64,000 nt of DNA from Stenotrophomonas indicatrix (GTDB lineage Bacteria; Pseudomonadota; Gammaproteobacteria; Xanthomonadales; Xanthomonadaceae), in NCBI GenBank assembly GCA_041545745.1, contig CP168152.1, positions 1,114,001 through 1,178,000 of the forward strand. The letters run 5' to 3'. Of the stretch, positions 10,253 to 29,425 are shown piece by piece (position 1 is the first letter of the stretch; every line of letters starts with the position of its first letter). Below the pieces are notes generated by a model, which did not search any database, was not told the origin of the DNA, and worked only from the letters and a program-made list of their open reading frames with translations. The position numbers and the translations under genes are program-made.

Positions 10253-10277
10253 CGGGGGCGGTGGAGACGAGCCGGTA

Positions 10278-12040: not shown

Positions 12041-12628
12041 ATGGCGCGCGGCATCAACAAAGTCATCCTGGTCGGCAACCTCGGCAACGACCCGGACGTG
12101 AAGTACACCCAGGGCGGTATGGCGATCACCCGCATCAGCCTGGCCACCACCAGCGTCCGCAAGGACAAGGATGGCAACCAGCAGGAGCGTACCGAGTGGC
12201 ACCGCGTGGTGTTCTTCGGCAAGCTCGGCGAAATTGCCGGTGAGTACCTGCGCAAGGGCAGCTCGGTGTACGTCGAGGGCAGCCTGCGCTACGACAAGTA
12301 CACCGGCCAGGATGGCGTGGAGAAATACTCCACCGACATCATCGCCGACGAAATGCAGATGCTGGGCGGCCGCGGTGAAGGCGGCGGTGGCGGCGGTGGT
12401 GGCAACTTCAGCGGCGGCGAGCGTCCGCAGCGCCAGCAGGCCCCGCGCCAGGAATACGGCGGTGGTGGTGGTGGTGGTGGCGGCGGCAACGCGCGTGGCG
12501 GCCAGGGCGGTGGTTACAACCAGGGTGGCAACCAGGGCGGCGGCTACGGCCAGCAGCGTCCGCAGCAGCCGCCGCAGCAGTCGGCCCCGCCGATGGATGA
12601 CTTCGCTGACGACGATATTCCGTTCTAA
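12041..12628 (+). CDS. ssb: single-stranded DNA-binding protein
   Basis: A protein of 195 residues. The OB-fold DNA-binding domain takes up about residues 1-112 ([18 protein letters not shown] start, [21 protein letters not shown]), followed by a long Gly-rich, Gln-rich disordered linker (residues ~113-180) and the acidic tip [10 protein letters not shown] that binds partner proteins such as exonuclease I, RecO and PriA. It coats ssDNA in replication, repair and recombination. The 264-base space upstream has room for a promoter; a strong terminator follows at once. This terminator is also the left edge of the genomic island, so ssb is the chromosomal landmark for its insertion. Confidence 0.97.
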
Positions 12629-12662
12629 GAAACACTTAAGTACTAACAGTTGAAATAAGCCA

Positions 12663-12700
12663 AGGAGGAGCCCTGTCTATGGGGCTCCTCCTTTTTTTTT
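12663..12700 (+). terminator. rho-independent terminator after ssb; left border of the island
   Basis: An 11-bp stem AGGAGGAGCCC / GGGCTCCTCCT with an 8-base loop is followed by a run of nine T. It lies 34 bases after the ssb stop codon and should end the ssb transcript. The recombinase operon of the island begins immediately after it. Confidence 0.93.
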
Positions 12701-12764
12701 GCGTTCTCGGGACGGCAAGAAAAAGAGCTATAGTCATACATACGTGAAATCAGGCGAGCAAGGG

Positions 12765-14096
12765 ATGAGCCCCAAGCTGTCGGTCCATGTGATGCAAGAC
12801 GGCGAGCGAGTTCCGATGCTCCACGACGAATCGGGCCTTCCGCTGTTCTATCCCACGTTGTACGCGACCTCGCAGCTGCGAAATGCTGGCGTGGCCGTCA
12901 ACACCATCCGCAACAAGCTTGCCGATCTGATCGTGTTGTTGCGATGGGAGGTTGCGAACTGTCGCAATTTGATTTCGGAGTTCCAGGATGGGAGCTTTCT
13001 GACCATCGCCGATGTGGTTTCGCTACGCGATTTCGCCAAGCTTGATATGCGGAACTGGAAATCCGATGGGCACTGCGCAGAGAAGCCAAGTATCCGTGTC
13101 CTGGGCTTTCTGGAGGCGAGGGTTGCCCCAAGCCGAGCTCGGGCCGCAATTGGCTCGCAACAACATTTCAATCGTCTAAGTACGATTGCCGACTATCTGG
13201 AGTTCACGGCAAGCGTCGTCACGCAGCACAACGGTTCTCACCAAATGGGACAAGAAATTGCTCGTATGGGGACTACCATCCGAAAGCACCGTCCGCGCGG
13301 TTTGACGAAGCATTTTGAGGAAGAGCCAGAACGTCGCTCCCCTCCGACCGACGTCGTGAATCACTTCATGGCAGTCGGATCTGAACGTGATTCAAGAAAT
13401 CCGTTCAAGCACCCGGATATCAGACTCCGCAACGCGATCATTTTCGGCCTGTTGAGACATACCGGCATGCGACGCGGAGAACTCTTAAGTCTTCGACTGG
13501 ATCAGTTTGACTTGGGCCACGAGCCCCTTGTTTGGGTTAGGCGCAACCAGGATGACAAGCACGATTCTCGACGCTATCAGCCTGTCGCTAAGACCAAGGA
13601 AAGACCTCTCCCGCTACCGGCTGAGCTCGCTGAGCAGCTCAGCCGATACATGCTGCAGGTCCGCGCTGGCATCCGTCCTGCGCGGCGGCACCCGTATCTT
13701 CTGATTTCGCATCGAAAGGGCGCTGGCTGGGGACAGCCACTCTCCATTTCTGCTCTCAACAGCCAGATCTTCGGTCGAATGCGGGCTGTGGACAGCGACT
13801 TTGAGCTGATCCATCCCCATGCGTTCCGACACCATTTCAACTATGAACTGTCCAGAAGCATTGATGAGCGCAACGCAGAGATTCAATCGGGCGCCACTGC
13901 TGAACACGCTGTACCAATCAGCGAGCATAGAGAACAGGATGTAAGGGCTTTCCTCAATGGTCACCGACATAGAGCCTCTGGCGCGGCATACAACCGCCGC
14001 CATATCCGCGAAGTCAGCGAAAAGGCCGCACGTCTGGTGCAGTCTGGGATGATGCGGAAGATCAATAAAAAAATGGCCGAAGAAGATGAAGACTGA
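12765..14096 (+). CDS. ginA: GInt tyrosine recombinase GinA
   Basis: About 443 residues, a tyrosine recombinase/integrase. An N-terminal SAM-like core-binding region is followed by the catalytic domain: box I Arg in RHTGMRRGELLSLRL (near residue 235), box II HPHAFRHHFN (His-x-x-Arg near residue 350), and the likely nucleophile Tyr in SGAAYNRRHI (near 408). The frame is open back to a TTG at 12699, but that lies in the T-tract of the terminator; a -10-like TATAGT at 12730 makes the ATG at 12765 the better start, with GTG at 12744 as an alternative. The stop overlaps ginB by 11 bases. In GInts all four gin genes are needed for integration and excision. Confidence 0.82.
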   Translation: MSPKLSVHVMQDGERVPMLHDESGLPLFYPTLYATSQLRNAGVAVNTIRNKLADLIVLLRWEVANCRNLISEFQDGSFLTIADVVSLRDFAKLDMRNWKSDGHCAEKPSIRVLGFLEARVAPSRARAAIGSQQHFNRLSTIADYLEFTASVVTQHNGSHQMGQEIARMGTTIRKHRPRGLTKHFEEEPERRSPPTDVVNHFMAVGSERDSRNPFKHPDIRLRNAIIFGLLRHTGMRRGELLSLRLDQFDLGHEPLVWVRRNQDDKHDSRRYQPVAKTKERPLPLPAELAEQLSRYMLQVRAGIRPARRHPYLLISHRKGAGWGQPLSISALNSQIFGRMRAVDSDFELIHPHAFRHHFNYELSRSIDERNAEIQSGATAEHAVPISEHREQDVRAFLNGHRHRASGAAYNRRHIREVSEKAARLVQSGMMRKINKKMAEEDED

Positions 14097-15627
14097 GCGA
14101 AGGCCTCTTGGAAGAGTCAAGCAAGCCGCGCTCAGCGCATTGTCAAAGGATGGCTATCCTTTCGATCCATCCAGCAACCAGTGGCGGTTAAACAAGGACG
14201 TCCAGCTCTCTCTGGTACTTCCGCACAGTATTGACCCTTCCGTCGAATCTGGCTTCCGCGCCACATTGCTTCGTTACGCTGAGGAAGCTTCGGGCCACCA
14301 TGCATACAACATGGAGAAAGGATTCAAGAAGTACCTCCGGGACACGGGGGCGTCGCACGTGTCGGTGGCTGAACTCATCAATTGGAGGGCCACCTTGGGC
14401 ACCCACGATCAATGGAAGCTCGGTGGATTGAAGGGGTTTTTGCTCGCATGGCATGACTATGGGTTTGATGGCGTCTCCACGGAGGTCGTCGATCTCCTGC
14501 AGGGGTGGCGGATTCAGGGCAACGAGAAGGGGGCGGCGGTTGCTAGCGGCTGTCCCGACAGCGGGCCGTACACCGACCTCGAGATGGCGGCCCTGCTGGA
14601 CTGGGCAAATCTGGCAATTACACGTAGGAACATTTCTCTAGAGGAATACGCGTACTTATTGGCGTTGGCAATGACGGCAAGACGCCCTGTCCAGCTCGCG
14701 GCACTTCGAGGTCGGGACCTGATCCGTGATAGCACAAGAGGGGTGGAGACCTTCAGGCTTCGAATTCCTCGTGCGAAGCAGCGTGGGATCAAGTTCCGCG
14801 GCGCGTTTCGCACGCTAGCTGTCATCGAAGACCTTTACCTGGTGCTTCAACAGCTGCACCAGCGTTCCGTCGCCTTGGCCAGCGAGACAGTAGAGCAAGC
14901 CATCGAGCCAGAATTGGCGGGCGAACTTCCAGTCTTTATCAATCGAGGGCGCCTGATGCAGGTGCGCAGCGTTCATGAAATGAAAGGGCTTCTAATGGGG
15001 GACGCACCAGACCGGTTGCATGCGACTACTTCCTCACTCTCATCGGCCCTGCGGCGCTGCGCGAGAGCGTCGACCGCTCGCTCAGAGCGGACCGGTGAGT
15101 TCATTCGGCTGTCCGCGACTCGCTTCCGACACACCCGGGGAACAAAGCTGCGTCGTGAGGGGTTCGGAGCCTTTGTGATCGCAGAACTGCTCGATCATTC
15201 TGATGTTCAGAATGTCAGCATCTATGCCAAGAGCACAGCGCAGGAGGCCGTTCTGATCAACGAGCTGGTTGGTGCCCAGCTGGCTCCTTTTGCGCAAGCC
15301 TGCCTGGGCAAGCTTGTCGCATCGGAGAGGGAGGCGATCCGCGGCGGCGATCCACGGAGCCGTGTAGCCAACGAGCGTCAAAACGCCGTTGGAACCTGTG
15401 GCAACTATGGGTTCTGTGCTAGTGGGTATCGTGCCTGCTATACGTGTAGTCACTTTCAGCCTTGGGTTAATGGACCTCACGAGGAAGTTCTGGCTGATCT
15501 TTACGCAGAGAAGGACCGAACTCGAGCTGCAGGATGTGCCGATGCGGTTGTGAATGCGAATGATCAACTGATACTTGCGGTTGAGCACTGTGTGGCAATG
15601 TGCAGAACCGCAAGGTCAACGGAGTAG
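14086..15627 (+). CDS. ginB: GInt tyrosine recombinase GinB
   Basis: A protein of 513 residues and the second recombinase of the operon. The catalytic domain shows box I LAMTARRPVQLAALRGRDL (near residue 198), box II ATRFRHTRGTKLRREG (near 346) and the Tyr nucleophile in HSDVQNVSIYAKST (near 379), where HSDV is the usual [LH]GH-like motif. After the catalytic domain comes a Cys-rich tail, Cys438, Cys444, Cys451 and Cys454, that looks like a small zinc-binding module and is unlike phage integrases. It overlaps ginA by 11 bases, consistent with translational coupling. Confidence 0.82.
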   Translation: MKTERRPLGRVKQAALSALSKDGYPFDPSSNQWRLNKDVQLSLVLPHSIDPSVESGFRATLLRYAEEASGHHAYNMEKGFKKYLRDTGASHVSVAELINWRATLGTHDQWKLGGLKGFLLAWHDYGFDGVSTEVVDLLQGWRIQGNEKGAAVASGCPDSGPYTDLEMAALLDWANLAITRRNISLEEYAYLLALAMTARRPVQLAALRGRDLIRDSTRGVETFRLRIPRAKQRGIKFRGAFRTLAVIEDLYLVLQQLHQRSVALASETVEQAIEPELAGELPVFINRGRLMQVRSVHEMKGLLMGDAPDRLHATTSSLSSALRRCARASTARSERTGEFIRLSATRFRHTRGTKLRREGFGAFVIAELLDHSDVQNVSIYAKSTAQEAVLINELVGAQLAPFAQACLGKLVASEREAIRGGDPRSRVANERQNAVGTCGNYGFCASGYRACYTCSHFQPWVNGPHEEVLADLYAEKDRTRAAGCADAVVNANDQLILAVEHCVAMCRTARSTE

Positions 15628-15647
15628 CCTCCTGGGAGCGAGTACTC

Positions 15648-17702
15648 ATGGGTGAAATCGTTCAGTTCGTGCCCCGCGCTGAGAAGGACGCAGATGCGAA
15701 TCTCATGGAGTTCATCCGGTTGACGAGGGAGGAGCTCACCGCTTTTGGAGGTGACGGCTCTTGGGTAGATGATAGATGGCAGGACGGGGCGACGACGGTC
15801 GTGTTTGCGACAAAGACGGCGCCGCTCGATCCCTATAGCTTCACTCCCATGGCTGAGCCATTCAAGCAGTTCGCCAAGGCTTATGTTCGTTACTCATGGA
15901 GCCACAGGCCCGTCAGAAATCTGTCCTTTATGATCCTGGCGCTCCGATGCGTAGAGGCCGGATTGCTCGCGGCCTGTGGGAGAGCGGATGTTGGACTTCT
16001 CGGCATTGCAGTTATGGACGTGTGCGCGAACAAGTGCGCTGAGTTCTGCGGCACCAAGCAGATTCAGTACTCGGTTGCTCGCCACATTCAATTGATCTTC
16101 GACTTTCTGCGTGAAAAAAGGCTTGTTCGATTCCTGCCGCCTTGGAAATCACCCTTCAAGAAGCCTGCGATCCTGACAGAGGGCGTGGGCGAAGCCGGAG
16201 CGGAATACCGTGCATCGAAACTTCCTTCCACACAGGTCATGCTGCAAGTTGCCGATCTCTTTGCAGTGGCGGACGACGTGGAGAGTCGCTACTTCAGCTC
16301 GCTGATGATTATTCTGATGGCCACCCCTAGCCGGATTTCCGAGGTGCTTCGGTTGCCGGTTGACTGTGTGCAATGGGAGTTGGATGAAGCCGGGCAGCCC
16401 CAGATGTACCTGCGCTGGAGAGCGGCCAAGGGCAAAGGGGGGATGAAGAAATGGGTTGTACCCGCAATGCATGAGGTGGTTCAGGAGGCCGTAAAGCGTC
16501 TTCTTGAGATAGGTCAACCTGCACGCGATGCAGCGAAATTCGCTTCGGCGAATCCGGGGCACTTCATGTATCACTCGGGCTGTCTGCGAGATACGAAAGG
16601 CGTCGATGAGACACCCCTCACCCCGGAGGAATTTTGTGCCGCTGTGAATGTTCGGTACCCGAGGCATAGGCCACGCGCCGGCCTCCGCGCCTGGCATGAA
16701 GTTCGCTTGGACAGCAGGTTGAAGGCTCTTGTTAATCAAGGAAGGACCAGCTACCGGGATCTAGCCGAACACGTGCTGAGCGAGTGCAGTGATGCCTATT
16801 GGCCGCACATCGACGGCGAGCGAGCTGTCCTGGCTTGGGATTCATTGTGCTTGCACAGGATCAATGAATTTCATATGGAGTTCGAGGCCAAACAGTTCTC
16901 GTGGCGGCTTCCCAACGCCAACGAAGTCAATAGCCGCCTCGGTAAAGCGGGCCGCCCGTCGTTGTTCGAACGAAAGGGGCTGAAGGGGGAGGGCGGGCGT
17001 GGGGTAAAGCTGACTACCCATCAGCTACGACATTGGCTCAGTACGATGTCTGAAAGGGCAGGAATGGACGATTTCACTCTCGCCCAATGGGCCGGGCGTG
17101 CGAGAGTTTCAGACAATAGGCACTACGACCATCGCAGCCCACAGGAGCGCCTGGCGGGTGCGCGAGAGCTCCTGCCCCTGCGCCACATATCGCTGTTAGA
17201 ACGCTTCAGTCAACGTGCGCCGGTCACCTATCAGGAGCTTGGTGTTGATCGGCTTGGAACTGCAAAAGCTACCCTCTACGGCATGTGTGTCCACGATTAC
17301 GCCATGGCACCTTGCCAGAAGCAGAGAGAGTGCATGACCTGCAAGGAGCATGTCTGTATCAAGGGAGATCATGTAACGCTTGAGCGAATCCGCTTGCTGG
17401 AACTGCAGACCGAAGCACTTCTCGCACGCGCGAGGAGAGCGCACTCTGCAGGTGACTTCGGCGCGGATCGCTGGGTCGATAGCCACAAGTGGAAGCTTGC
17501 ACACGTCAGGGCTATGAGGCTCGCACTCGAGCATCCTGAGGTTTCGTCAGGGGCTGTTCTTAGAATACCGGAGGGGCACGATCCCTCACCAGTTCGTAGA
17601 GCGTTGCTCGATCTTGGGTTGATAGAACATCCCGCCTCAGAATCACTCGACACCCTCAACATCACAATGCACGGGAGTACGGATAAGTGCCCAGAATTGT
17701 AG
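15648..17702 (+). CDS. ginC: GInt tyrosine recombinase GinC (large)
   Basis: About 684 residues, the largest of the three recombinases. Box I is ATPSRISEVLRLPVD (near residue 226), box II is TTHQLRHWLSTMSERAG (near 458), and the Tyr nucleophile lies in SDNRHYDHRSPQ (near 491). A C-terminal Cys cluster starting near Cys547 (CVHDY..APCQKQRECMTCKEHVC) resembles the zinc-finger-like tail of the large TnpB-type recombinase of Tn554-family elements. The ATG at 15648 has GGGAGCG ten bases upstream; a GTG at 15600 that would overlap ginB is possible. Its 3' end overlaps ginD by 16 bases. Confidence 0.82.
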   Translation: MGEIVQFVPRAEKDADANLMEFIRLTREELTAFGGDGSWVDDRWQDGATTVVFATKTAPLDPYSFTPMAEPFKQFAKAYVRYSWSHRPVRNLSFMILALRCVEAGLLAACGRADVGLLGIAVMDVCANKCAEFCGTKQIQYSVARHIQLIFDFLREKRLVRFLPPWKSPFKKPAILTEGVGEAGAEYRASKLPSTQVMLQVADLFAVADDVESRYFSSLMIILMATPSRISEVLRLPVDCVQWELDEAGQPQMYLRWRAAKGKGGMKKWVVPAMHEVVQEAVKRLLEIGQPARDAAKFASANPGHFMYHSGCLRDTKGVDETPLTPEEFCAAVNVRYPRHRPRAGLRAWHEVRLDSRLKALVNQGRTSYRDLAEHVLSECSDAYWPHIDGERAVLAWDSLCLHRINEFHMEFEAKQFSWRLPNANEVNSRLGKAGRPSLFERKGLKGEGGRGVKLTTHQLRHWLSTMSERAGMDDFTLAQWAGRARVSDNRHYDHRSPQERLAGARELLPLRHISLLERFSQRAPVTYQELGVDRLGTAKATLYGMCVHDYAMAPCQKQRECMTCKEHVCIKGDHVTLERIRLLELQTEALLARARRAHSAGDFGADRWVDSHKWKLAHVRAMRLALEHPEVSSGAVLRIPEGHDPSPVRRALLDLGLIEHPASESLDTLNITMHGSTDKCPEL

Positions 17703-18121
17703 TGACAAAGGCGGCTCTGCCAAAAATACTGCGTGAACTTGACCGCTGGGAGGGGAAGCTCACCTGGCCGTTGTTCTGCGCGCGAGTCGCATTGGTGCTG
17801 GGCGTCGGCTCAGTATCCAAGCACACCATGTACCTCTATCCCACGATCAAAGAGCGTTTCCAGCAACGCCAACGGGATTTGAGGGAGGCGAAGGATGCGC
17901 TTCCCAGGGACTTCACTCTGAGTGGAGCAGTCCGACGCATTGCAGATCTGGAGGCTCAGGTCCGCAGGCTCGAGGAAACGAACAACCTGTTGCTGAACCA
18001 ATTCCGTCGTTGGCAGTACAACGCCTATGCCAACAATGTTCGGATTGATCTACTGCAGCTAGATCGCCCATTACCATCATTGAGTCGTGCGAATCCCCTG
18101 CCCAGAGGGCACTCTAGGTAG
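17687..18121 (+). CDS. ginD: GInt accessory protein GinD, small coiled-coil protein
   Basis: A protein of 144 residues with a GTG start inside the end of ginC. It is rich in charged residues and strongly helical, with a heptad-like segment AVRRIADLEAQVRRLEETNNLLLNQF (about residues 84-110, shown only as its ends here: AVRRIADLEAQ ... LLLNQF). Size, position and coiled-coil nature match GinD of GInts and TnpC of Tn554, small DNA-binding helpers that influence the direction or efficiency of recombination. No enzymatic motif is seen. Confidence 0.75.
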   Translation: MPRIVVTKAALPKILRELDRWEGKLTWPLFCARVALVLGVGSVSKHTMYLYPTIKERFQQRQRDLREAKDALPRDFTLSGAVRRIADLEAQVRRLEETNNLLLNQFRRWQYNAYANNVRIDLLQLDRPLPSLSRANPLPRGHSR

Positions 18122-18200
18122 GGCAGGTAGAGGGCGAATTGTCCGTGATTTGCATCTGGATATTCGACGTGCAAGACGCGTGCCGCAGAGAACGACCTCC

Positions 18201-18392
18201 TCATCTCCGTCGAGTGACCTGCTTCCTGTAACACTTACTACTCGACTTATGAGGCCTCCGGGCGGACAGCCAGATTGCCCAAAGCGTGAACGAAATGGCT
18301 GAGACTGAGATGAAGATGCCAACGATTAGGATCGCCTGATCAGTCGCGTTCAATGGCGTTTGCTCCATCAATGGTTGAGATGAAGATGTCAT
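18201..18392 (-). CDS. possible small membrane protein of the island cargo
   Basis: A 63-residue frame reading against the gin operon. It has one clear transmembrane segment (AILIVGIFISVSAISFTLWAI, abbreviated: about residues 20-41) flanked by a polar Ser/Thr/Gln N-terminus and a basic C-terminal tail (SARRPHKSSSKCYRKQVTRRR-like), a plausible N-out/C-in arrangement. The ribosome binding site is weak. It may be a real single-pass protein or a chance frame; I do not recognise it. It lies in a 640-base region otherwise without a clear gene. Confidence 0.3.
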   Translation of the reverse strand: MTSSSQPLMEQTPLNATDQAILIVGIFISVSAISFTLWAIWLSARRPHKSSSKCYRKQVTRRR

Positions 18393-18542
18393 GTTATCTC
18401 AGGATCTCGATCGATAGTGCGGGCACGATGGCTGCATTCAGAGGATTCTAGGATCGATCTCCTATTTGAAGGCCTGAACTGCGGGCAGTATGGCTACATG
18501 TCACTTATGTCTACTGCCTGACTACACGCAGCAGAGGTCCTC

Positions 18543-18760
18543 ATGGAAGGAATCGAGTGCACATTTATGTGCCTGTATTCGGTAGGAGTTGGCACAACTC
18601 GTACCGAGGCCCAAGGGGGGGGGCGTTCGTCCAGACCCTTTCTATCTTCAGACGCAAGCTGCCTGCCAGGGGGGCAAGCAGACCATCGACGAGGCGATAG
18701 AACGCGTCGGAGACCCGGCGATCTCCGACTACTCTTATGAACCATGTCGCGGCGGCGCGG
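18543..18760 (+). pseudogene. possible small gene interrupted at a G9 tract
   Basis: An ATG at 18543 begins MEGIECTFMCLYSVGVGTT; this frame runs into a run of nine G at 18615-18623. Beyond the tract the better-looking coding sequence is in another frame (VRPDPFYLQTQAACQGGKQ, then a TIDEAIERVGDPAISDYSY segment). Eight instead of nine G would join the two into one protein of about 80 residues before it reaches the convergent gene at 18765. This could be a broken gene, a phase-variable one, a sequencing error in a homopolymer, or coincidence. No family was recognised. Confidence 0.25.
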
Positions 18761-18764
18761 CTGG

Positions 18765-19472
18765 CTATTGGGGTTGGCAGCGTACCCTCAGCTCATCGTT
18801 CACTGCGTTGCCGATTTTAAGTATCAAGTCCTCTTGCCGCTGATACTCGTATATCAGCGTCGAGCGAACCCATTTGGGTGGATAATCTGTCCCTTCGTAG
18901 GTGAAAGGATTGAATCGCAGGCCGTGTTCGACCGTGTCGGACTCGAAGTTCACCGAATAGGACACCTCGATGATGGAGCGATGCTTTGAGTGGTTACTCA
19001 GCGCCGCCAGATAGCTGAAGCCGGGATCGTCCAGTAGCGCTCTCAGCCCTTCCTTGATGGGGCCCTCGATGAGCCTCTTGTTCACCTTGGACCAGGTGAT
19101 GTCGCGCTCCTGCTCTATACGAGTGGTCGGATCCAAGTTGGCGCCAAGAACGTAATAAATGAAGTGGACCATGTTGTCGACGACGGCGTGCATGCTTTGG
19201 ACGCAGGCGACCGTGTGGGCATATGCCTGAAATCGTGCGGTACTGAACTGCCGATCGTCGGTATCAAATGCCCCCATGAGCGCGGCAGTCAACTCGAAGG
19301 TCTCTCGACCCTGGAGTGCATCCTCCATCCGGCTTCTCGCTTCGTTGAAGTGATACCGGCTGAATTCACGCCGGTCTCCTATCGTTCGGAGGCATTGGTT
19401 GATCGTACGAAGCTGTTCTTTGCCGAACAGGCGATTCGCGTGGTCCCGCAGTTCCCTCAAATTCCACTTCAC
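18765..19472 (-). CDS. hypothetical helical protein of the island cargo
   Basis: A protein of 235 residues predicted to be mainly helical, with no signal peptide or membrane segment. The stretch LAALSNHSKHRSIIEVSYSV near residues 165-184 has the Asn-x-x-Lys-His pattern seen in some HEPN-like helical proteins near conflict systems, but the catalytic Rx4-6H of HEPN RNases is not certain. It lies 228 bases downstream of the ATPase gene on the same strand and could be expressed with it or independently. I do not recognise the family; the defence link rests on location only. Confidence 0.6.
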   Translation of the reverse strand: MKWNLRELRDHANRLFGKEQLRTINQCLRTIGDRREFSRYHFNEARSRMEDALQGRETFELTAALMGAFDTDDRQFSTARFQAYAHTVACVQSMHAVVDNMVHFIYYVLGANLDPTTRIEQERDITWSKVNKRLIEGPIKEGLRALLDDPGFSYLAALSNHSKHRSIIEVSYSVNFESDTVEHGLRFNPFTYEGTDYPPKWVRSTLIYEYQRQEDLILKIGNAVNDELRVRCQPQ

Positions 19473-19700
19473 CCGCGTTCCTCCTGCTAGTTCTTTCGAC
19501 TACTCGGTGTCTGAGTACAATGACCTATCGCCTCTTGCTAGGGACAGACAACCGACGAAAGCCCCTGGCGCCAAGCCATACCGAGCAAGATCGCCGATTC
19601 CCCAGCAAAAATTCCTTCGTATGGTGCATGACCCTATATAGCCTGGCCCCGAAGAACGTCCCTCTACTGTGAAAGGAAAACGCTCCTCGATGAGCTATTG

Positions 19701-22700
19701 CTAGTGAAGGGGGGCGACTGATTCGCTTTGAGTTCTCTCGAGGTTGATGGCTCTGAATTCATCCCCCAAGAAACTCATCTTTCTGACAAACAGGTTAGCC
19801 AGCTTGTCGTCTGCAGTGGCGAAGAATATCTGCCTCGTGCCGGACTCCGCGACGTCGCCAAGATAGTCGAGTAACGCCAATGAGTTTATGTCATCAATGT
19901 GCGCAACGGGGTCATCAATTAGCATAAGCGGGGGTCCCGAATGTAGGGAGCCGTTAAGGGTCAGAAATACGCTAAGGACTAATGCAGCACGTTGGCCGGT
20001 GCTGATCTGAGAAAGAGTTGCGGTAGAGTTGTCGAAATTGCGGATTAGCTCGCAGCTGTTCAGGCTGGAAATTCGGAGTTCATTTGGTACATGAATTCTC
20101 TCGAATATGCTCTGAATCGAATCTAGGTTCGTGCGCAAGAAGTCCGATAGTCCTTGCTCAAGACTGTTTTCTGCGACTATGCCGTTAAGTGTTTCTTCGG
20201 CGGACGTAAAATTATCGAGCTCCTTCTGGGCTCGATCTCTGTCACTCAGGTGCTCCGCGAGTTCCCTGGTGAGATTATTGCGCTCCGCGTTCCTTGCCTT
20301 GCCAATGGAAATGTCTGCGCCAGCTTGAATGATCTGGGAATACGCTAAGCTTGCAACCTCAGAAAAAAGGCGAAGATTGCTGTCGGTGACATGCCGTACG
20401 GACTGGGGTAGTCGTGAGTATGCCTCCAAAAATTGTCTCTTCTCCCGCCTCCTCCTAAAGAGTTCCTCTCTTGCCTCGTCGGGATCACTATTTCCCGAGA
20501 CACTAATTGACAATTTCCCAAGGAGTAAATCATTGGCTCGAAGACGATCATGCGCATCGCTCAGCGATCGACGAAGTTCTTCCTGCTTCGCCGAAATTCT
20601 TTTGGAAGCCTCCATAAGTTCAATTTCCCCGTCAACTCCTTCATTCCATTCGATAGATGCTTCGGCAGAGCACCTGGAGGCAACTCCGGAGTACTCATTG
20701 TAGTTGAAGCCCTGTTGAATAAGGCTCTCAAGCTTGGCGGAAAACATCCTGCGCTCTGCATCGAAACTATCCTCAATCTCTCGCTGTCTTCTGCACTGCT
20801 CATCCAGTTCGGGAGTGCTAAGTGAGCTGATGTAGGGGAACTCCCGAATTATCGTGCTTAGAGATTGATGCGCTAGTCTTATTTCGGACAGCGACCGTGT
20901 AGTATCGAGATGTTTCTCTTCGATCGAGGCGAGGTGAGCATTTCCGGATTCAGTGAGAGAACGTTCAATCCTGAGAATTAGCTCGCCTTCCTCAAAGTGA
21001 GTATGACAAAGAGGGCAGCTGTCGTTGCGATGGTCAGAAAGAATCTTTCTGCCAATGGCTATTATCTGTGTTCGGAGAGATTCAAGTTCTTCCCGGCGAC
21101 TTCTTTCAGCGCCTATCTCCATTGAAATAATTTGGGCGCGGCTATGGAGATAATTGATCTGATCAGTCAGGTGTTTATGGAGGTCTTCAATCGTGCGGCT
21201 TATTGATTCTCCAGGTTGGGCTGGGTACGTTTGCTCCAGTTCACGCAGTACGGCGATTGCCTCTACTGAAGGCATCGGTCGAAGCGCCGCGCGGGCACTC
21301 AGCTCACTTACTTTCTTGTAAACTCCGTAGAATCCTACCCTATGATATTCCCTGAGTCGCTCCAGTGCTCGAAGTGTCGCTTCGGTGGCCTTTGAAGTGG
21401 TATTGATCTGGCTAATCGTGGCAACAGTCTCTCGCCTGCTTGACTCCGATGCTGAGATTGCATTAACTGTATCTTCAATATCGGTTAGTTGCTTCTTCAC
21501 TCCATAAATGGAACTCGGGGCGTCCGACGGGAGAGTGTCAATCGCCATCTTCAGTGGTGCTAGTGTCTCAAAGTACGATGGATCGGAAAGATCGTCGACC
21601 GATTCCGGCCAGCCAAGGAGGGCCAGAAGCTCATCTATCTGTGCAAGACGAGACGAGAGTTCCGGGCCTGGATCATCAAAGACAGATAGCCTGGATTCAG
21701 TCGAGGAGATCTGTTGGTCGAGACGTGCTATATCCCGCTTCAACGAAGATATCTGCGGCCTGATATCCTCTATGACTTTCTGGATTCGCTCCCATGCAAT
21801 ATTGGCATCGGGACCCAGGGCCACTCTCGAGAGAATGGTTGTTAGATCTTGCTGCTCCCTTTGTCTAGAAAAGTCAACGGGGGCGTCGGTATTTAGGAAG
21901 TTATATCGGGCGAATCCCTCAAATAGTCGATTGCCACGAGTCTTGCGCCCGTACCACTTCAGATCTCGCTGCTGGAAATATGACGCTGGCCGATCTCTGA
22001 ACGCTACACTTCTATCCGTGTTTCGGAACGACGCGGTCGCCCTGAGGGTCTCACTTTGGCCTTCGCCACGAGAAGTGCCACCGCAGAGGAAGTGTTCGAT
22101 CGCTTCTAGGAGCGATGTTTTCCCTGCTCCATTTGCGCCACGTATGAGGTTGACGCGCCCAAAGGAGAAGTTTCCTTTCAGTCGCCGTGTCCCGAATTCG
22201 TCAATTTTCAGATTAGTGAAGAACGCGTCCGGCTGAGTGTCAGAAACTGGCTTGATCGTTAATGGTGCAATTCGCTTTTGCCCGTTCCTGATAGATCGGA
22301 CTACTTCCGCTCTAGGGAGATCAGAAACTACTGCATCCAAATTTGCAGCCTGTAGGGCGTTGTTCCAGCGAAGCTGCAGGTCATTTGCATTGTGTGGTTG
22401 AGCCTGTATGGGCCAATTTCTTCTGCGGATGAAGTCGCTAAGTTGGTCGTCCGCAATGATCAACTTGCGCGCATAAGAAGTATCAGTTTCAATCTTCGCA
22501 AGCCGCCCTGGAGTTCGTTCTATCTCCGACGGGGGGACGAGAAAGATCAGGTAATGGTTCCATCTGCTGTCGTCTTGGGACGCAAAGAATGAAGGCGCAA
22601 TGACCGTGGACTGAATTGAATGGAGCTCGTCGTCCGTAGGTATGAACTGAGCCGATTTGATGAAATAGACACTGCGGACATTTTCTCCAACTCTATGCTC

Positions 22701-22781
22701 GCATCGCGCAAAACCACTCTCCAGTTCTTCGCAACTCTCAAAAGAAGCTGACAGCGTTGGCATCAGATCAGAAGTGTTCAT
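19701..22781 (-). CDS. SMC/Rad50-like ATPase with zinc hook and N-terminal extension
   Basis: A protein of 1026 residues. Residues 1-185 form a separate alpha/beta domain containing WNHYLIFLVPPSEIERTP and IETDTSYARKLII, which resembles the small 'middle component' proteins of ABC-three-component conflict systems, here fused (weak, from memory). From ~190 comes an ABC/SMC ATPase: Walker A GANGAGKTS (215-223), a long coiled coil interrupted by CPLCHTHF near residue 588 (zinc-hook-like), ABC signature STGQRAAL (near 925), Walker B PLMLIDDP with AHIDD D-loop (near 954), and an H-loop-like FFATADD where His is replaced. It follows the nitrilase-like gene by three bases. Such proteins usually sense or hold DNA and control a partner effector. 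Base composition is more A+T-rich than the flanks. Confidence 0.85.
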   Translation of the reverse strand: MNTSDLMPTLSASFESCEELESGFARCEHRVGENVRSVYFIKSAQFIPTDDELHSIQSTVIAPSFFASQDDSRWNHYLIFLVPPSEIERTPGRLAKIETDTSYARKLIIADDQLSDFIRRRNWPIQAQPHNANDLQLRWNNALQAANLDAVVSDLPRAEVVRSIRNGQKRIAPLTIKPVSDTQPDAFFTNLKIDEFGTRRLKGNFSFGRVNLIRGANGAGKTSLLEAIEHFLCGGTSRGEGQSETLRATASFRNTDRSVAFRDRPASYFQQRDLKWYGRKTRGNRLFEGFARYNFLNTDAPVDFSRQREQQDLTTILSRVALGPDANIAWERIQKVIEDIRPQISSLKRDIARLDQQISSTESRLSVFDDPGPELSSRLAQIDELLALLGWPESVDDLSDPSYFETLAPLKMAIDTLPSDAPSSIYGVKKQLTDIEDTVNAISASESSRRETVATISQINTTSKATEATLRALERLREYHRVGFYGVYKKVSELSARAALRPMPSVEAIAVLRELEQTYPAQPGESISRTIEDLHKHLTDQINYLHSRAQIISMEIGAERSRREELESLRTQIIAIGRKILSDHRNDSCPLCHTHFEEGELILRIERSLTESGNAHLASIEEKHLDTTRSLSEIRLAHQSLSTIIREFPYISSLSTPELDEQCRRQREIEDSFDAERRMFSAKLESLIQQGFNYNEYSGVASRCSAEASIEWNEGVDGEIELMEASKRISAKQEELRRSLSDAHDRLRANDLLLGKLSISVSGNSDPDEAREELFRRRREKRQFLEAYSRLPQSVRHVTDSNLRLFSEVASLAYSQIIQAGADISIGKARNAERNNLTRELAEHLSDRDRAQKELDNFTSAEETLNGIVAENSLEQGLSDFLRTNLDSIQSIFERIHVPNELRISSLNSCELIRNFDNSTATLSQISTGQRAALVLSVFLTLNGSLHSGPPLMLIDDPVAHIDDINSLALLDYLGDVAESGTRQIFFATADDKLANLFVRKMSFLGDEFRAINLERTQSESVAPLH

Positions 22782-22784
22782 TCT

Positions 22785-24509
22785 TTAGCCCGCCGTTATG
22801 CTTGTGGGGTCGCAGTCTGGATCTTGACTGATCAGAGGGGGAGTTGTGTCCATGTAGTCCTCTACGTCGCCGGCGTCATTACGGTATAGGATCGAAAGTA
22901 GAAGGATATCTTCTCCGCAATCAAATAGACGCTTTGACAGATTGTCCTTGGTTTTCTCTAGGACGGAGGTTGGTGGCGAGGATCCCAGATTAACAACAGT
23001 AGCTCGATTATCGCCAACAACTAGGTTCCTGTAGCGTCTAACCTGTGGCGACGGATTGTATGTGAGTGAAGGTTTCAATGAGCGGAAAGAAGCCAAGCGC
23101 GCTGGCAACTTCGTTGGGTTGTCTACGATCGCAACCAGGGAGTTAAACCTCCTCAAACACTCATGTCTATTCTGGCCACCCAGTCCGTCGTCGAACCAGC
23201 AAAGCTGGACTCGAGAAGGGGTGTCGTCGTCCTCCAAGTGAAATGACAACATTCCTTTCCAGTGGAATGCCTCGTCAGTCAGGATATTCCCAGTCGAAAG
23301 CTGTATGACTCTTTCCAAATCCATTGGCTGGGATTTGTAAGGCGTCAAATGAATGTCTGTGGCAGGCTTTCCTGCTAGATAACTTGCGAAGCTATTGTCA
23401 GCATGCTGAGTGCACGACACCCACTCGTTAGAGTCCCACTCGTAACGCGCGACCACCGCTATCCCAGTGGGTCTGGCTACGGCGGCCGCTCCGATCATGA
23501 GGGGCTTTGATATTTTGAGTTCGAAAACGTTCTCGTGAGGGTGGAAGACATAAGCCGCAGTTCTGTAGCGATGAAAATTGGTTAGATAGCAACCCTTCTG
23601 ATCGTTGCTAGTAATAGTTGTGTCGCTCTCATTGATGCCCTCCAAGGTTCGGTAATATATGCTCTTGGGTTGGAGTATGAGCGGAATCCGCCTGTCACCT
23701 TTAGCTATCGCCGTACCTTTTGCCCAATTGAGAGATAGTATTTCGACGGTTCTCGGGGCGGAGCAATTGAAATGGTCGCGGTAGGATCTGAATCCGGCAG
23801 CGGCCGGATCTGGATTCAATTGGAGGTGGGCGATTATTGTATTTTGTTTGACTTTCTCAACTACGTCGGGATGGAATTTGGGGTTGAGTGAGTCTGAGCA
23901 TATCAGACAGATAAGTCTATTTTCGTCGGCTTTGCCGAAGCGATAGATCACGGTTCCGCAAATTAACCCGTCGCGCTCGAAATCAATTCCGCCCATCGGC
24001 GCTGTCTTAGCTTGGAAGATGGCAATGGGTATCAAGTTTCCGTTGGAATCTCTGGCCCAAAAGAAGTGGCAAAGCAGGTTGATGAAGCTGCCGCCTGAGG
24101 CCGCCAGAACGGGTTCGATAACTGTGATCTTGTTATCCTTGAGAACTTCAATGACGCCACTGAGCTCATCGGGTTTTATGCTTTCGAAGCAGATCGACCA
24201 AAGTGCCCCCTGTCGAGGGTGAATTCCATTCTTTGCTGCTTCGACTAATGTTTGCCAAGGGAATAGGTATTCGGGTGCGGTCGCGAAGTCGATGTTTCTA
24301 AACCTGGCAAGCTTGAGGAAGGCAGTGGCTTTAAGGGCCAGACTTTCCCTGTCAACCGCATGGATGCCATCGTCTGATGTGATCAAGTCAGCGCAAGGCT
24401 GAAATATCAGGGATGATATCTTTTCAAAACCTGTTCCCAAAAACGTGAGGTATGCCTCTCCAATGTCAATCGCCCCTAGCGCGTCATTGGTGTCTACAAG
24501 ATCAACCAC
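22785..24509 (-). CDS. nitrilase-fold (carbon-nitrogen hydrolase-like) protein, partner of SMC-like ATPase
   Basis: A protein of 574 residues, otherwise hypothetical. Residues ~1-270 carry the three landmarks of the C-N hydrolase (nitrilase) superfamily in order: Glu80 in DFATAPEYLFPW, Lys168 in a strand after a DSNGN turn (LIPIAIFQAKTAP), and Cys204 in RLICLICSDSLNP. The Lys-Cys distance of 36 residues is normal for the family. The C-terminal ~300 residues are unassigned and without clear motifs. The gene is first in a two-gene unit with the ATPase three bases downstream. By analogy with other ATPase-effector pairs, the nitrilase domain would be the effector, perhaps cleaving an amide-bearing metabolite. 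No N-terminal signal is seen. Function is inferred, not known. Confidence 0.75.
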   Translation of the reverse strand: MVDLVDTNDALGAIDIGEAYLTFLGTGFEKISSLIFQPCADLITSDDGIHAVDRESLALKATAFLKLARFRNIDFATAPEYLFPWQTLVEAAKNGIHPRQGALWSICFESIKPDELSGVIEVLKDNKITVIEPVLAASGGSFINLLCHFFWARDSNGNLIPIAIFQAKTAPMGGIDFERDGLICGTVIYRFGKADENRLICLICSDSLNPKFHPDVVEKVKQNTIIAHLQLNPDPAAAGFRSYRDHFNCSAPRTVEILSLNWAKGTAIAKGDRRIPLILQPKSIYYRTLEGINESDTTITSNDQKGCYLTNFHRYRTAAYVFHPHENVFELKISKPLMIGAAAVARPTGIAVVARYEWDSNEWVSCTQHADNSFASYLAGKPATDIHLTPYKSQPMDLERVIQLSTGNILTDEAFHWKGMLSFHLEDDDTPSRVQLCWFDDGLGGQNRHECLRRFNSLVAIVDNPTKLPARLASFRSLKPSLTYNPSPQVRRYRNLVVGDNRATVVNLGSSPPTSVLEKTKDNLSKRLFDCGEDILLLSILYRNDAGDVEDYMDTTPPLISQDPDCDPTSITAG

Positions 24510-24897
24510 GTGCTGTCCCTACGCCCCCATGGATTTGGAGAGTGTAGCGACCTTGCGTCAAAAGTGTAATGGCGGAGGTTTCCGTCAACCTTGGCTGACG
24601 ACGATTGCGTCAGATTGCATGAGTCTTTGATCAACTTTCCGGCGCGCGGTCCGCAGTCTCCGTGAGGTCGTCGCGCGCGGGAGGGGGGGGGGCTGAGAAT
24701 CAAGCGGGTGCCGAGGCCGAACTCTGCGACGCGAGCCGTGGCACTGCGCGGACAGCACGCGGGAAGGCCGCGCCCAGGCGCCGGTCGGTGCGGCGCTTCA
24801 CCGTGTTCAAGCCAGTACCCAGAGTTCGCTCAACAACGTCGGGGTCATCTTTTCTTCCAAGTTGCCGATATAGAAGGCAACTCATTGGAGGGCAAGC
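24510..24897. other. intergenic region with G10 tract and GC-rich patch; promoter region of the cargo module
   Basis: This stretch separates the divergent nitrilase-like gene and membrane protein gene. It holds a run of ten G at 24683-24692 and, to its right, a G+C-rich patch (about 24,640-24,830) that stands out from the A+T-rich cargo on its left. Frames that cross the patch (such as one from 24662) have Arg/Gly/Ala-rich translations typical of non-coding GC-rich DNA. It must contain the promoter for the leftward nitrilase-ATPase pair. No convincing gene was seen. Confidence 0.5.
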
Positions 24898-25680
24898 ATG
24901 AACTGGCTGGACTGGGAAGTTCTCTATTGGAAATGGATACCGGTGTGGTCATGGATCTACATAGGCTCGCTGCTGTCTGTGGTTGCGCTGTTCGCATTCT
25001 GGGGAATAATCGAACGGCGCCAGGGGCGTGTGCGTTACTTGGTGACGCAGAGCGCAGCGATGACTTGGACGGTGGTCTGGAGCATTCTTGGTGTGACGGG
25101 ACTGGTTCTAAAGTCCGTCTCCGCTGGAATGAGCCCTTCGATGTTCCGAGCGGGAATGATGATGCTCCTGGCCCCGATTCTGCCAGTCGCAGTTTGGCTA
25201 CAGTGGCAGTGGAACGTGACCCGCGTGCTTGTACTGTCGAGTCCCGACCGTGGCCAGCCCGCCTGCGAGTGGAATCCTGCGTATCGCTATGTACTGGAGC
25301 CGATTGGATTCGGGAAGGTGCAGCTCCATGTAGTGAAGCGGTCGAAGTCTCGATTTATGCGATTGATTCGAATTCAAAAGTGGAAGCCCGAACAAACCTC
25401 CAATATAGGCGTGCTGGGCGGGAGAGCCGCGTTGGTGGGACTGCTCAATGGACTACTGCCTGGTGAGCAAATCGAACTCATCACGCCCAATGCTGGATTG
25501 ACGAAAGCCTTAGACAAGGCGGTGAAGAAAGGGCTTCCGGCTGAGTTCGCAGTGTCGCCGGCAGCGAGGAGGCTGGGGCATGTGGCGCTGCTTGGAGGAC
25601 GTTTGATGGGAGGAGGTTGGAGCTGGGCGTTCGCCATGCGCAATCCAGTGATTAGTGGCTACAGAATCCGACGCATGTGA
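24898..25680 (+). CDS. hypothetical membrane protein of the island cargo
   Basis: A protein of 260 residues with a good ribosome binding site (GGAGGG nine bases before the ATG). Three hydrophobic segments occupy the N-terminal half: WIYIGSLLSVVALFAFWGII, AAMTWTVVWSILGVTGLVL and MLLAPILPVAVWLQWQW. The C-terminal half is soluble and basic (VKRSKSRFMRLIRIQKWK, then ALDKAVKKGLPAEFAVSP). It reads away from the nitrilase-ATPase pair. I do not recognise the family. In defence modules a membrane protein nearby can be an effector, but there is no direct evidence here. Confidence 0.6.
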   Translation: MNWLDWEVLYWKWIPVWSWIYIGSLLSVVALFAFWGIIERRQGRVRYLVTQSAAMTWTVVWSILGVTGLVLKSVSAGMSPSMFRAGMMMLLAPILPVAVWLQWQWNVTRVLVLSSPDRGQPACEWNPAYRYVLEPIGFGKVQLHVVKRSKSRFMRLIRIQKWKPEQTSNIGVLGGRAALVGLLNGLLPGEQIELITPNAGLTKALDKAVKKGLPAEFAVSPAARRLGHVALLGGRLMGGGWSWAFAMRNPVISGYRIRRM

Positions 25681-26063
25681 TTGCACGATGAGTCGCCCCG
25701 CGGCTTGTTGCTCGGCGGGACCTCAGGCAGAACCAACGTGCATGCCGGGCGTGGAGGGGCTGCGTGGCACCGGTCCTGCTACCGCTGTTGGAGGTCCGAT
25801 GCCGAGTAGGCCGATTCTTTTCTTGTGCTACCAGGGCTTAGACAAGCGCCAGCGGCAGACGGCAGTTGCGCTCTGAAGGGCCGGGTCACGCGCTAGCGGG
25901 CTGGAAAATCTACTGAATCAGCTCGCATGGTTGAGGAAAATGTCTCCTAGCTTTCTCTTAAGCTATTGATTTAAAGGTATTTTTTCGTCCACTCGAGCGC
26001 TAGTCTGATTTACTCCTGTGTACACAACCGTTCTGATCGAACGCTTGTCAGCAGGAAGAACGA
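25681..26063. other. AT-rich right end of the island; no gene seen
   Basis: The first ~230 bases show nothing coding. From about 25,913 the sequence becomes clearly A+T-rich (AAGCTATTGATTTAAAGGTA and a T6 run near 25,981). This agrees with the short AT-rich 3' end described for GInts, where the element's right recombination site is expected. The region ends at the terminator hairpin at 26,064. Confidence 0.55.
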
Positions 26064-26093
26064 AAGCCCCGCCCATGCGGGGCTTTTCTTTTT
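26064..26093 (+). terminator. terminator hairpin at the right border of the island
   Basis: GCCCCGC / GCGGGGC stem (26066-26072 and 26077-26083) with a four-base loop, followed by TTTTCTTTTT. Its position just after the AT-rich end and its shared GGGGCT...TTTTT sequence with the terminator behind ssb make it a candidate for the second copy of the flanking imperfect repeat. It would also insulate the downstream catabolic operon. Confidence 0.8.
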
Positions 26094-26148
26094 CCAGAGA
26101 CTCCTGTCGACGTTGTGCCCCGCAGCATGAGATTTCTTGCACTGCGTC

Positions 26149-26178
26149 TTGCAAAAAAACAATTTCCTCCCCTATGGT
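26149..26178 (+). promoter_or_regulatory. putative promoter of the rightward catabolic operon
   Basis: TTGCAA (26149-26154) and TATGGT (26173-26178) are spaced by 18 bases and each match the sigma-70 consensus at four of six positions. The last bases touch the palindromic operator that follows, so a bound repressor would block initiation directly. By-eye assignment only. Confidence 0.4.
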
Positions 26179-26191
26179 GCAATCGATTGCA
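26178..26191. promoter_or_regulatory. LacI-family operator, copy 1
   Basis: The perfect 14-bp palindrome TGCAATCGATTGCA, with CG at the centre as in LacI/GalR operators. An identical copy at 34,843 lies in front of the leftward operon and next to the LacI-type gene at 34,922, which is therefore the likely repressor. Confidence 0.75.
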
Positions 26192-26241
26192 TTGCGGCGA
26201 AATCGTCAGTGTTTGATACCGGTTGGGAGGCCGGAAGGTGG

Positions 26242-27138: not shown

Positions 27139-27164
27139 AACGATATCCACCAGGTGAGTGATCC

Positions 27165-28850: not shown

Positions 28851-29425
28851 TGGACCGCCGCGAACTGCTGAAGATGATCGTCGCCGCCACCGGTGCGGCG
28901 ATGGTCGGACTGCCTGCGCTCGGTCAGGCACAGGCTCCTGCCGCAGGGGCGAAGACGCGCTTCTCCGACGCGGATGTCGGCACGCTGGACGAGATCGCCG
29001 AGACCATCCTGCCGCGCACGAAGACGCCGGGGGCGAAAGAAGCAGGCGCCGGTACGTTCATGGCGACGTTCGTCAGCGACTGCTACACCGCCCGGCAGCA
29101 GGCGACGTTCCGCGCCGGCCTGGCCGATATCGACAAGCGCGCCGGCGGCCGCTTCGTTTCACTTGCGCTGCAGGCCCGCACCGAACTGCTGCGGGCGCTG
29201 GATGCAGAGGCCAGGAAACACGCAGTCGAGGTGACCGAAACCGGCACCGCCGAGGAAGGAGAAGTGATGCCGCATTACTTCACGATGCTCAAGCAGCTGA
29301 CCATCTTCGGCTTCTTCACCTCGAAGGTCGGCGCGACCGAAGTGCTGCGCTATGTCGCGGTACCGGGGCGCTACGAAGGTGACCTCGCCTATGTTGCCGG
29401 TACGCCTGCGTGGGGGACCAGCTGA
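28850..29425 (+). CDS. gluconate 2-dehydrogenase subunit 3 family protein (small/hitchhiker subunit)
   Basis: A protein of 191 residues beginning MDRRELLKMIVAATGAAMVG, a Tat-type signal with the twin Arg, followed by an Ala-rich cleavage region. The mature part shows DEIAETILPRTKTPGAKEAG, diagnostic for the small subunit of GMC dehydrogenase complexes. Such subunits provide the export signal and stabilise the catalytic subunit. The start codon shares a base with the stop of the dehydrogenase gene (TGATG), as does its own stop with the next gene, showing tight coupling of all three. Confidence 0.9.
   Translation: MDRRELLKMIVAATGAAMVGLPALGQAQAPAAGAKTRFSDADVGTLDEIAETILPRTKTPGAKEAGAGTFMATFVSDCYTARQQATFRAGLADIDKRAGGRFVSLALQARTELLRALDAEARKHAVEVTETGTAEEGEVMPHYFTMLKQLTIFGFFTSKVGATEVLRYVAVPGRYEGDLAYVAGTPAWGTS

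What the first reader, a model, noticed from the sequence alone, without database searches (positions are those of the whole stretch)
19701..24509. Two-gene module pairing a nitrilase-fold protein with an SMC/Rad50-like ATPase on a mobile island
Seen: the genes are three bases apart on the same strand, A+T-rich against their surroundings, and carried as cargo by a recombinase-driven island. The ATPase has Walker A, a coiled coil with CPLC hook, an ABC signature and Walker B; its partner has a Glu80-Lys168-Cys204 arrangement of a C-N hydrolase. Known: SMC-like ATPases coupled to an enzymatic effector are a recurring design in anti-phage and conflict systems (for example Lamassu and ABC-three-component systems). 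Inference: here the effector is a nitrilase-like amidase/hydrolase, which I cannot match to any named defence system, so this may be a new one. It could instead be a DNA-repair or plasmid-exclusion module.
Basis: partly seen in the sequence, partly recalled or inferred. Interest (0 to 1): 0.88.

Follow-up and report, generated by a model that had tools for sequence, protein, structure and literature searches.

The report
Nitrilase–Rad50-like ATPase gene pair
Two neighbouring genes on a mobile DNA island look like a bacterial immune module in which a Rad50-like DNA sensor controls a nitrilase-type enzyme; it appears to be a distant, untested member of a known kind of defence system rather than a wholly new one.

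Summary
The 574-aa protein has a nitrilase (C-N hydrolase) fold: the 50 Foldseek rows printed (of 980) are all that superfamily. Glu80-Lys168-Cys204 is invariant in 31 of 31 aligned proteins. The 1026-aa partner is a Rad50/SMC-like ATPase with a CPxC hook and an ABC-three-component "middle component" domain at its N-terminus. The pair is a unit: 27 of 28 loci from a genome-collection scan have the ATPase directly downstream, in Proteobacteria, a Holophagae MAG and haloarchaea. It is cargo of a 13.4-kb island at the end of ssb, with empty sites in 4 of 15 same-genus relatives, matching published "GInt" islands.

The "new system" claim is only partly right. The ATPase matches Lamassu LmuB (E 1e-32). 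A review lists "C-N hydrolase" among LmuA effectors. The one genome found (of 299) with PADLOC LmuA model PDLC03850 has the same layout, its ATPase frame interrupted. I read the pair as a divergent nitrilase-effector Lamassu/ABC-3C module; trigger, substrate and abortive infection are inferred. The substrate of the DRT1 defence nitrilase is an open question, which keeps this interesting.

The parts
22785..24509 (-). Effector gene: 574-aa protein, N-terminal nitrilase/C-N hydrolase domain (about aa 26-340 in the profile alignment) plus a C-terminal region of unknown fold
24270..24272 (-). Glu80 of the E-K-C triad
   Evidence: 31 of 31 invariant; in register with the Glu of 30 canonical C-N hydrolases
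24006..24008 (-). Lys168 of the triad
   Evidence: 31 of 31; the only invariant Lys
23976..23978 (-). Glu178, candidate second Glu of the nitrilase tetrad
   Evidence: 31 of 31; 10 residues after Lys168; its role as second Glu is inference
23898..23900 (-). Cys204, predicted nucleophile (CSD motif)
   Evidence: 31 of 31; the only invariant Cys
19701..22781 (-). Sensor/ATPase gene: 1026-aa Rad50/SMC-like ABC ATPase, LmuB-like
   Evidence: PADLOC LmuB E 1e-32; AAA_23 4.3e-8 above cut-off, SMC_N 1.5e-8 below cut-off; Rad50 chains best in the PDB profile search
22431..22580 (-). Middle Component 1-like stretch (ATPase aa 68-117) at the N-terminus
   Evidence: PF20289 30.4 bits, cut-off 27.3; reached by 9 of 31 members at E <= 0.01
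22113..22139 (-). Walker A (aa 215-223)
   Evidence: N217, G218, G220, K221, T222, S223 31 of 31
21006..21017 (-). CPLC hook motif (aa 589-592)
   Evidence: CPxC 31 of 31
19992..20003 (-). ABC signature STGQ (aa 927-930)
   Evidence: S, G, Q 31 of 31
19908..19925 (-). Walker B (aa 953-958); Asp956 invariant, next residue Asp in 24 and Glu in 7 of 31
12627..26034 (.). GInt-like genomic island carrying the pair
   Evidence: empty sites in G005, G001, G010, G011
12620..12626 (+). Left 7-bp direct repeat overlapping the end of ssb
26028..26034 (+). Right 7-bp direct repeat
12699..14096 (+). Tyrosine recombinase 1 (GinA-like by position)
   Evidence: PF00589 E 9.2e-12
14086..15627 (+). Tyrosine recombinase 2 (GinB-like by position)
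   Evidence: PF00589 E 1.1e-6; NF041502 588.7 bits, cut-off 350
15600..17702 (+). Recombinase-like protein 3 (GinC-like by position)
   Evidence: PF00589 25.6 bits, just under the cut-off of 27.1; homologue in the G008 trio
17687..18121 (+). Small 144-aa ORF (GinD-like by position)
   Evidence: position; 75% identical to its counterpart in G008

Best explanation
The pair is a two-gene immune module of the Lamassu/ABC-3C kind. The Rad50-like ATPase, with the usually separate middle component fused to its N-terminus, is the sensor: its heads and hooked coiled coil would clamp foreign or abnormal replicating DNA of phages or plasmids. On binding it would change state or oligomerise and release or assemble the nitrilase-fold partner, docked through its C-terminal region. 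The active nitrilase would then use Cys204-Lys168-Glu80 to hydrolyse a C-N bond in an essential small molecule (an amide or similar), stopping growth before phage or plasmid spreads. Shown here: fold, conserved catalytic residues, linkage, domain make-up, relation to LmuB, mobility. Inferred: DNA sensing, docking, activation, substrate, abortive infection.
For: Nitrilase fold: the 50 Foldseek rows printed (of 980 at E <= 10; 100 at E <= 1e-3) are all C-N hydrolases, best E 2.8e-8, probability 1.00. Triad 31 of 31, in register with canonical enzymes. LmuB match 1e-32; ABC-3C middle component PF20289 above cut-off. Linkage in 27 of 28 scan loci and in four plasmid records. Members weakly match PADLOC LmuA (3 of 31, best E 2.2e-4) and RT-nitrilase (5 of 31, best 8.5e-4); profile match of the family to the LmuA protein of L040 89%, E 2.4e-6. 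The Polaromonas copy lies about 4 kb from genes annotated HamA (Hachiman) and DEAD/DEAH helicase. Sporadic: 0 of 40 relatives. A sister island at the same site carries type I R-M genes. C-N hydrolase is a listed LmuA effector domain.
Against: No activity has been tested. PADLOC has no hit for the window's 574-aa protein at E <= 1, and 28 of 31 family members miss the LmuA model; of ten scanned singly only L020 reached it, at E 0.028. The middle-component model is reached by only 9 of 31 ATPases, and the model of aa 1-192 matched no PDB chain at E <= 1e-3. The LmuA of L040 has no Pfam match at E <= 0.01 and, as a single sequence, did not match the canonical C-N hydrolase or RT-nitrilase profiles (0.4% each), so its nitrilase nature rests on its alignment with this family. 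The family itself matches canonical C-N hydrolases only weakly by profile (24.7%). The neighbourhood survey had no background control. One scan locus (L034) has an effector fragment and no ATPase. The effector was not found in phage records or viral contigs. The mirror-tree r of 0.985 mostly reflects joint inheritance.
Confidence: 0.72

Rival explanations
1. Anti-plasmid or plasmid-competition module: the same machinery, but the trigger is incoming or replicating plasmid DNA, as with DdmABC, so it serves the island or plasmid that carries it. (Overlaps with the best explanation in mechanism.)
For: Four copies lie on plasmids; the Lamassu system DdmABC acts on plasmids according to the review passages seen.
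Against: 26 of the 31 aligned pairs come from genome contigs whose replicon type was mostly not determined; no trigger was tested.
Confidence: 0.14
2. DNA repair or maintenance module: a Rad50-like ATPase with a metabolic amidase partner that serves the host or the island.
For: The best solved relatives of the ATPase by profile are Rad50 chains; the Natronorubrum copy is followed by genes annotated PD-(D/E)XK nuclease and DNA helicase.
Against: Sporadic: 0 of 40 relatives and 0 of 396 other genomes of a phylum sample (few candidates per genome were scored); carriage on mobile DNA; LmuB is a far stronger profile match.
Confidence: 0.07
3. The nitrilase makes a toxic product or a signal rather than depleting a metabolite; the ATPase is still the sensor. 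(A variant of the best explanation.)
For: The DRT1 authors consider toxin generation for their nitrilase (PMC13275509, passage seen).
Against: Nothing here tells it from depletion.
Confidence: 0.12

Closest known systems
Lamassu (LmuA/LmuB/LmuC), ABC-3C, with a C-N hydrolase effector
   Same: SMC/Rad50-like ATPase with LmuB homology; effector gene adjacent; CPxC hook; middle-component domain; C-N hydrolase is a listed effector class; the PADLOC LmuA locus in G277 has the same gene order and a middle-component stretch at the start of its ATPase
   Different: Window effector has no hit to the LmuA models; no separate LmuC gene; ATPase 1026 aa against about 650 for LmuB in the review; Walker B Asp-Asp or Asp-Glu rather than the Glu-to-Gln change described there
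DRT1 (RT-nitrilase; PADLOC RTasNitrilase)
   Same: Nitrilase domain in a phage-defence protein; substrate not known to its authors; weak profile similarity (50%, E 1.6e-4)
   Different: Nitrilase is part of a reverse-transcriptase protein and is controlled by protein-primed DNA synthesis, not by an SMC-like ATPase
Canonical nitrilase superfamily (formamidase AmiF, Nit2, aliphatic amidase)
   Same: Fold and E-K-C triad
   Different: 10-15% identity in the Foldseek rows; about 230 further C-terminal residues; encoded beside the ATPase in 27 of 28 scan loci
GInt genomic islands (ginABCD)
   Same: Three recombinase genes plus a small ORF, then cargo; insertion at the 3' end of ssb; short flanking repeats (PMC5385486; abstract and passages seen)
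   Different: Exact repeat of 7 bp here; the paper reports imperfect repeats of 10-17 nt. No direct comparison with published Gin proteins was made

Membership tests
Lamassu / ABC-3C | SMC/Rad50-like ATPase LmuB | tested here: met
   PADLOC LmuB E 1e-32, best stretch aa 439-1000
Lamassu / ABC-3C | Effector LmuA recognised by current models | tested here: inconclusive
   Window protein 0 hits; 3 of 31 family members, best E 2.2e-4; profile comparison with the LmuA protein of L040 89%, E 2.4e-6
Lamassu / ABC-3C | Middle component, as a separate gene (LmuC) or a domain | tested here: met
   No separate gene in the pair; PF20289 at ATPase aa 68-117, 30.4 bits against 27.3; 9 of 31 members; structure search gave nothing at E <= 1e-3. 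The review says some systems lack LmuC
Lamassu / ABC-3C | Zinc hook CPxC | tested here: met
   31 of 31; present in many but not all LmuB
Lamassu / ABC-3C | Walker B Glu-to-Gln change, described as general in LmuB | tested here: not met
   Residue 957 is Asp in 24 and Glu in 7 of 31. The review says 'generally', so I do not treat it as strictly defining
Lamassu / ABC-3C | Anti-phage or anti-plasmid activity needing both genes | not testable with these tools
   no bench test
C-N hydrolase (nitrilase) superfamily | Nitrilase fold | tested here: met
   AlphaFold2 model, pTM 0.79, mean pLDDT 73.8; Foldseek best E 2.8e-8
C-N hydrolase (nitrilase) superfamily | Glu-Lys-Cys triad | tested here: met
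   31 of 31, aligned with the canonical residues. Their distance in the model was not measured
C-N hydrolase (nitrilase) superfamily | Pfam PF00795 match | tested here: not met
   Window protein none; 2 of 31 members at E <= 10, best 0.0064
GInt island | ginABCD: three tyrosine recombinases and a small ORF | tested here: met
   the third is just under the Pfam cut-off; no direct comparison with published Gin proteins
GInt island | Site-specific insertion with flanking repeats, often at the end of ssb | tested here: met
   Four empty sites, 7-bp repeat
GInt island | Excision as a circle | not testable with these tools
   no bench test

The most novel reading that the evidence does not exclude
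A distinct, cross-domain (bacteria and haloarchaea) branch of SMC-type immunity in which DNA sensing licenses a nitrilase that destroys an essential amide metabolite, a chemistry reached separately in DRT1. Sensor, middle component and a dedicated nitrilase form a closed two-gene unit whose effector PADLOC-DB 2.0.0 mostly does not recognise.
Probability: 0.4. Interest if true: 0.75.

Novelty: new member of a known kind. Interest (0 to 1): 0.5.

Why it matters
[quoted passage not shown] This family would put the same fold under a different control device, with 30 related pairs from bacteria and archaea beside the window's, so features shared by the active sites could point to the substrate. It also shows a gap in annotation: 28 of 31 effectors have no hit to the LmuA models of PADLOC-DB 2.0.0 at E <= 1.

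Tried and rejected
Sequence-level identification failed first: Pfam, NCBIfam and PADLOC gave nothing useful for the 574-aa protein, and hmmsearch of the PDB with 31 homologues reached a nitrilase only at E 2.1. The predicted structure settled it.

Viral origin: no relative of the effector in viral contigs or phage records. The ATPase alignments gave nothing and one match of 48 residues around Walker A (L009), not pursued; the ATPase was not searched in phage records.

Common host gene: rejected, 0 of 40 relatives; in the phylum samples only the window's own genome matched, 1 of 397 each (at most 3 and 2 candidates per genome were scored in the rows shown).

RNA element: no Rfam match in 10000-30000. 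tRNA insertion site: no tRNA in the window. Repeat search did not show the 7-bp repeats, being set to 16 or more.

Recombinase trio as a fixed partner of the pair: rejected, no tblastn match at 1e-8 in L001, L005-L007 or L010-L037. phmmer of the first recombinase in the PDB: nothing.

Active nuclease in the ATPase N-terminus: the model shows a restriction-enzyme-like order of elements, but no hit at E <= 1e-3 and no D-(D/E)xK pattern conserved in all; not claimed.

Relatives of the L040 LmuA in plasmids: none.

Defence neighbours: 137 flanking proteins scanned with PADLOC at E <= 1e-10. They are up to three per side, 150 aa or more, of 24 loci or so among L010-L036; open-ended ORFs, the four plasmid records, L034 and L037 were left out, and two very long proteins of the 139 listed were dropped. 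In the first 70, 12 families hit, each in one member, among them LmuA, LmuB and candidate systems. In the other 67, 225 families hit and the 25 shown are mostly GajB/UvrD helicase models, with IetS and RTasHel, two members each. Pfam on the first 70 showed a mix of metabolic, transport and mobile-element domains. No background control, so I give it little weight.

Literature limits: Krishnan 2020 and Millman 2022 are not held, so whether they describe this clade or the fused middle component is unknown to me. Full-text searches for Lamassu + nitrilase, ABC-three-component + nitrilase, ABC-three-component + Middle Component and carbon-nitrogen hydrolase + antiphage returned no paper of that library.
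Full report
What is there. The two ORFs are as described: 22785-24509 (-), 574 aa, and 19701-22781 (-), 1026 aa, three bases apart, in blocks of 49-51% G+C within a chromosome that is mostly 64-70% outside the island.

The effector. No Pfam, NCBIfam or PADLOC family matches the 574-aa protein usefully. Homologues were found first on a Polaromonas plasmid (29% identity) and three haloarchaeal plasmids, then by the one scan of the genome collection (28 loci). In 31 aligned proteins E80, K168 and C204 are invariant. The scan pattern covered only the H-x-Q-x-N-P-x-P region, so conservation of that region is partly by construction; conservation of the triad is not. K168 is the only invariant Lys of 26 and C204 the only invariant Cys of 13; 23 of 26 invariant residues lie in the first 300. 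An AlphaFold2 model from 28 sequences has pTM 0.79, mean pLDDT 73.8, with ten-residue means of 80-97 over aa 1-170; much of the region after about 405 is below 70. Foldseek gives 980 PDB matches at E <= 10, 100 at E <= 1e-3; the 50 rows printed are all C-N hydrolases, best formamidase 5g3p at E 2.8e-8. Profile alignment to 30 canonical C-N hydrolases is weak (24.7%, E 8e-4) but puts all three catalytic residues in register; a control, canonical against RT-nitrilase, gave 95%.

The ATPase. Walker A, CPxC hook, SxGQ signature and Walker B Asp are invariant in 31 of 31; the residue after the Walker B Asp is Asp in 24 and Glu in 7. Rad50 chains are its best PDB relatives by profile. PADLOC's best family is LmuB, E 1e-32. 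At aa 68-117 it matches PF20289, the ABC-3C Middle Component 1, above the cut-off; 9 of 31 members match at E <= 0.01. A model of aa 1-192 (pTM 0.58) found no PDB match at E <= 1e-3; its top, weak matches are restriction endonucleases, and no nuclease motif is conserved in all.

Linkage. Of the 28 scan loci, 27 carry the ATPase gene directly downstream on the same strand. By the mechanical start calls of that script the two frames overlap by 4 bases in 13, by 1 in one, abut in one, and overlap by more in 12, where the longest possible start was taken. One of the 27 (L037) is the same record as a plasmid already found (L005). The exception, L034, has only a 106-aa effector fragment and no ATPase hit in its 20 kb. 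The window, four plasmid records and 26 scan loci give 31 distinct pairs (L034 and L037 left out), in 24 clusters at 90% effector identity and 7 at 50%. Taxa by record title: Burkholderiales and other Betaproteobacteria, Pseudomonas, Xanthomonas, Rhodanobacter, a Gammaproteobacteria MAG, a Holophagae MAG and haloarchaea. Distance matrices of the two proteins correlate at r 0.985 against a maximum of 0.26 in 2000 shuffles; this shows joint inheritance, not interaction. In three groups of close relatives the coiled-coil part of the ATPase is less conserved than its heads and N-terminal domain.

The island. In 4 of 15 same-genus genomes (G001, G005, G010, G011) the left flank matches up to window 12626 and the right flank from 26028, and the two overlap by 7 bp; the same 7 bp stand at 12620-12626 and 26028-26034. 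Seven others (G002, G003, G006, G008, G009, G013, G014) have both flanks with other stretches between them or a shortened flank, and four (G004, G007, G012, G015) had no match to the right flank. The island is thus about 13.4 kb, inserted at the end of ssb (12041-12628). Its left end carries three recombinase-like genes and a small ORF, 12699-18121. This matches the GInt islands of Bardaji et al. 2017 (PMC5385486; abstract and passages seen), which have ginABCD, variable cargo often including restriction systems, and repeated insertion at the end of ssb. Relative G008 carries a homologous trio plus small ORF (64-75% identity) at the same site with type I restriction genes as cargo; G009 carries a remnant of the first recombinase.

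Relation to known systems. A 2023 review (PMC10586767; passages seen) groups Lamassu with ABC-3C, describes an effector LmuA, a middle component that some systems lack, and LmuB, and lists C-N hydrolase among LmuA effector domains, citing papers that I could not read. Searching 299 genomes with PADLOC LmuA model PDLC03850 found one. There the LmuA gene stands upstream of an ATPase whose first piece carries PF20289; the frames of the LmuA end and of the ATPase are interrupted. Our family aligns to that LmuA at 89% probability, E 2.4e-6, with its Glu, Lys and Cys in register; on its own that LmuA had no Pfam match and did not match the canonical profile. Three of 31 family members touch the LmuA model and five the RT-nitrilase model of DRT1, all weakly. 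In DRT1 the nitrilase domain is activated to give abortive infection and its substrate is open (PMC13275509; passages seen).

Conclusion. The pair is best read as a divergent nitrilase-effector Lamassu/ABC-3C module with the middle component fused to the ATPase. The kind is in print as a predicted effector class; this clade is mostly missed by the PADLOC effector models. Defence function, trigger, activation and substrate are inferred, supported by relation to LmuB, mobility, sporadic distribution, a Hachiman neighbour on one plasmid and restriction cargo in a sister island. The broader neighbourhood scan had no control and is not counted.

Noticed in passing
L104 (G008) 8189-14931: A GInt-like island at the same ssb site in a relative carries type I methylase, specificity and restriction genes, so the ssb 3' end is a recurrent landing site for such cargo.
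   Followed up: yes
L103 (G009): About 7.5 kb insertion at the same site with a remnant of the first recombinase; four of its ORFs had no PADLOC match.
   Followed up: partly
L106 (G006): About 2.3 kb of other sequence at the same ssb site; contents not examined.
   Followed up: no
L040 (G277) 5706-12455: A PADLOC LmuA gene related to this family, followed by an ATPase with a middle-component stretch; the reading frames are interrupted.
   Followed up: partly
L005 12731-16684; ORFs of 862 and 953 aa also in L033, L036, L037: Downstream of the pair in several haloarchaea lie genes annotated PD-(D/E)XK nuclease and DNA helicase (annotation seen in L005 only; the others by ORF length; L037 is the same record).
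   Followed up: no
window 22206-22781 (ATPase aa 1-192): Predicted order of elements resembles a degenerate restriction-endonuclease core, with weak Foldseek matches to MspJI and R.BspD6I; no catalytic motif conserved in all.
   Followed up: partly
ATPase coiled coil, aa about 360-840: Less conserved than heads and N-terminal domain among close relatives, as expected of a coil but also of a sensor under selection.
   Followed up: partly
window 24708-25680: Unidentified overlapping ORFs (252 and 260 aa) in the right part of the island; the 260-aa one has no significant family match, the other was not scanned.
   Followed up: no
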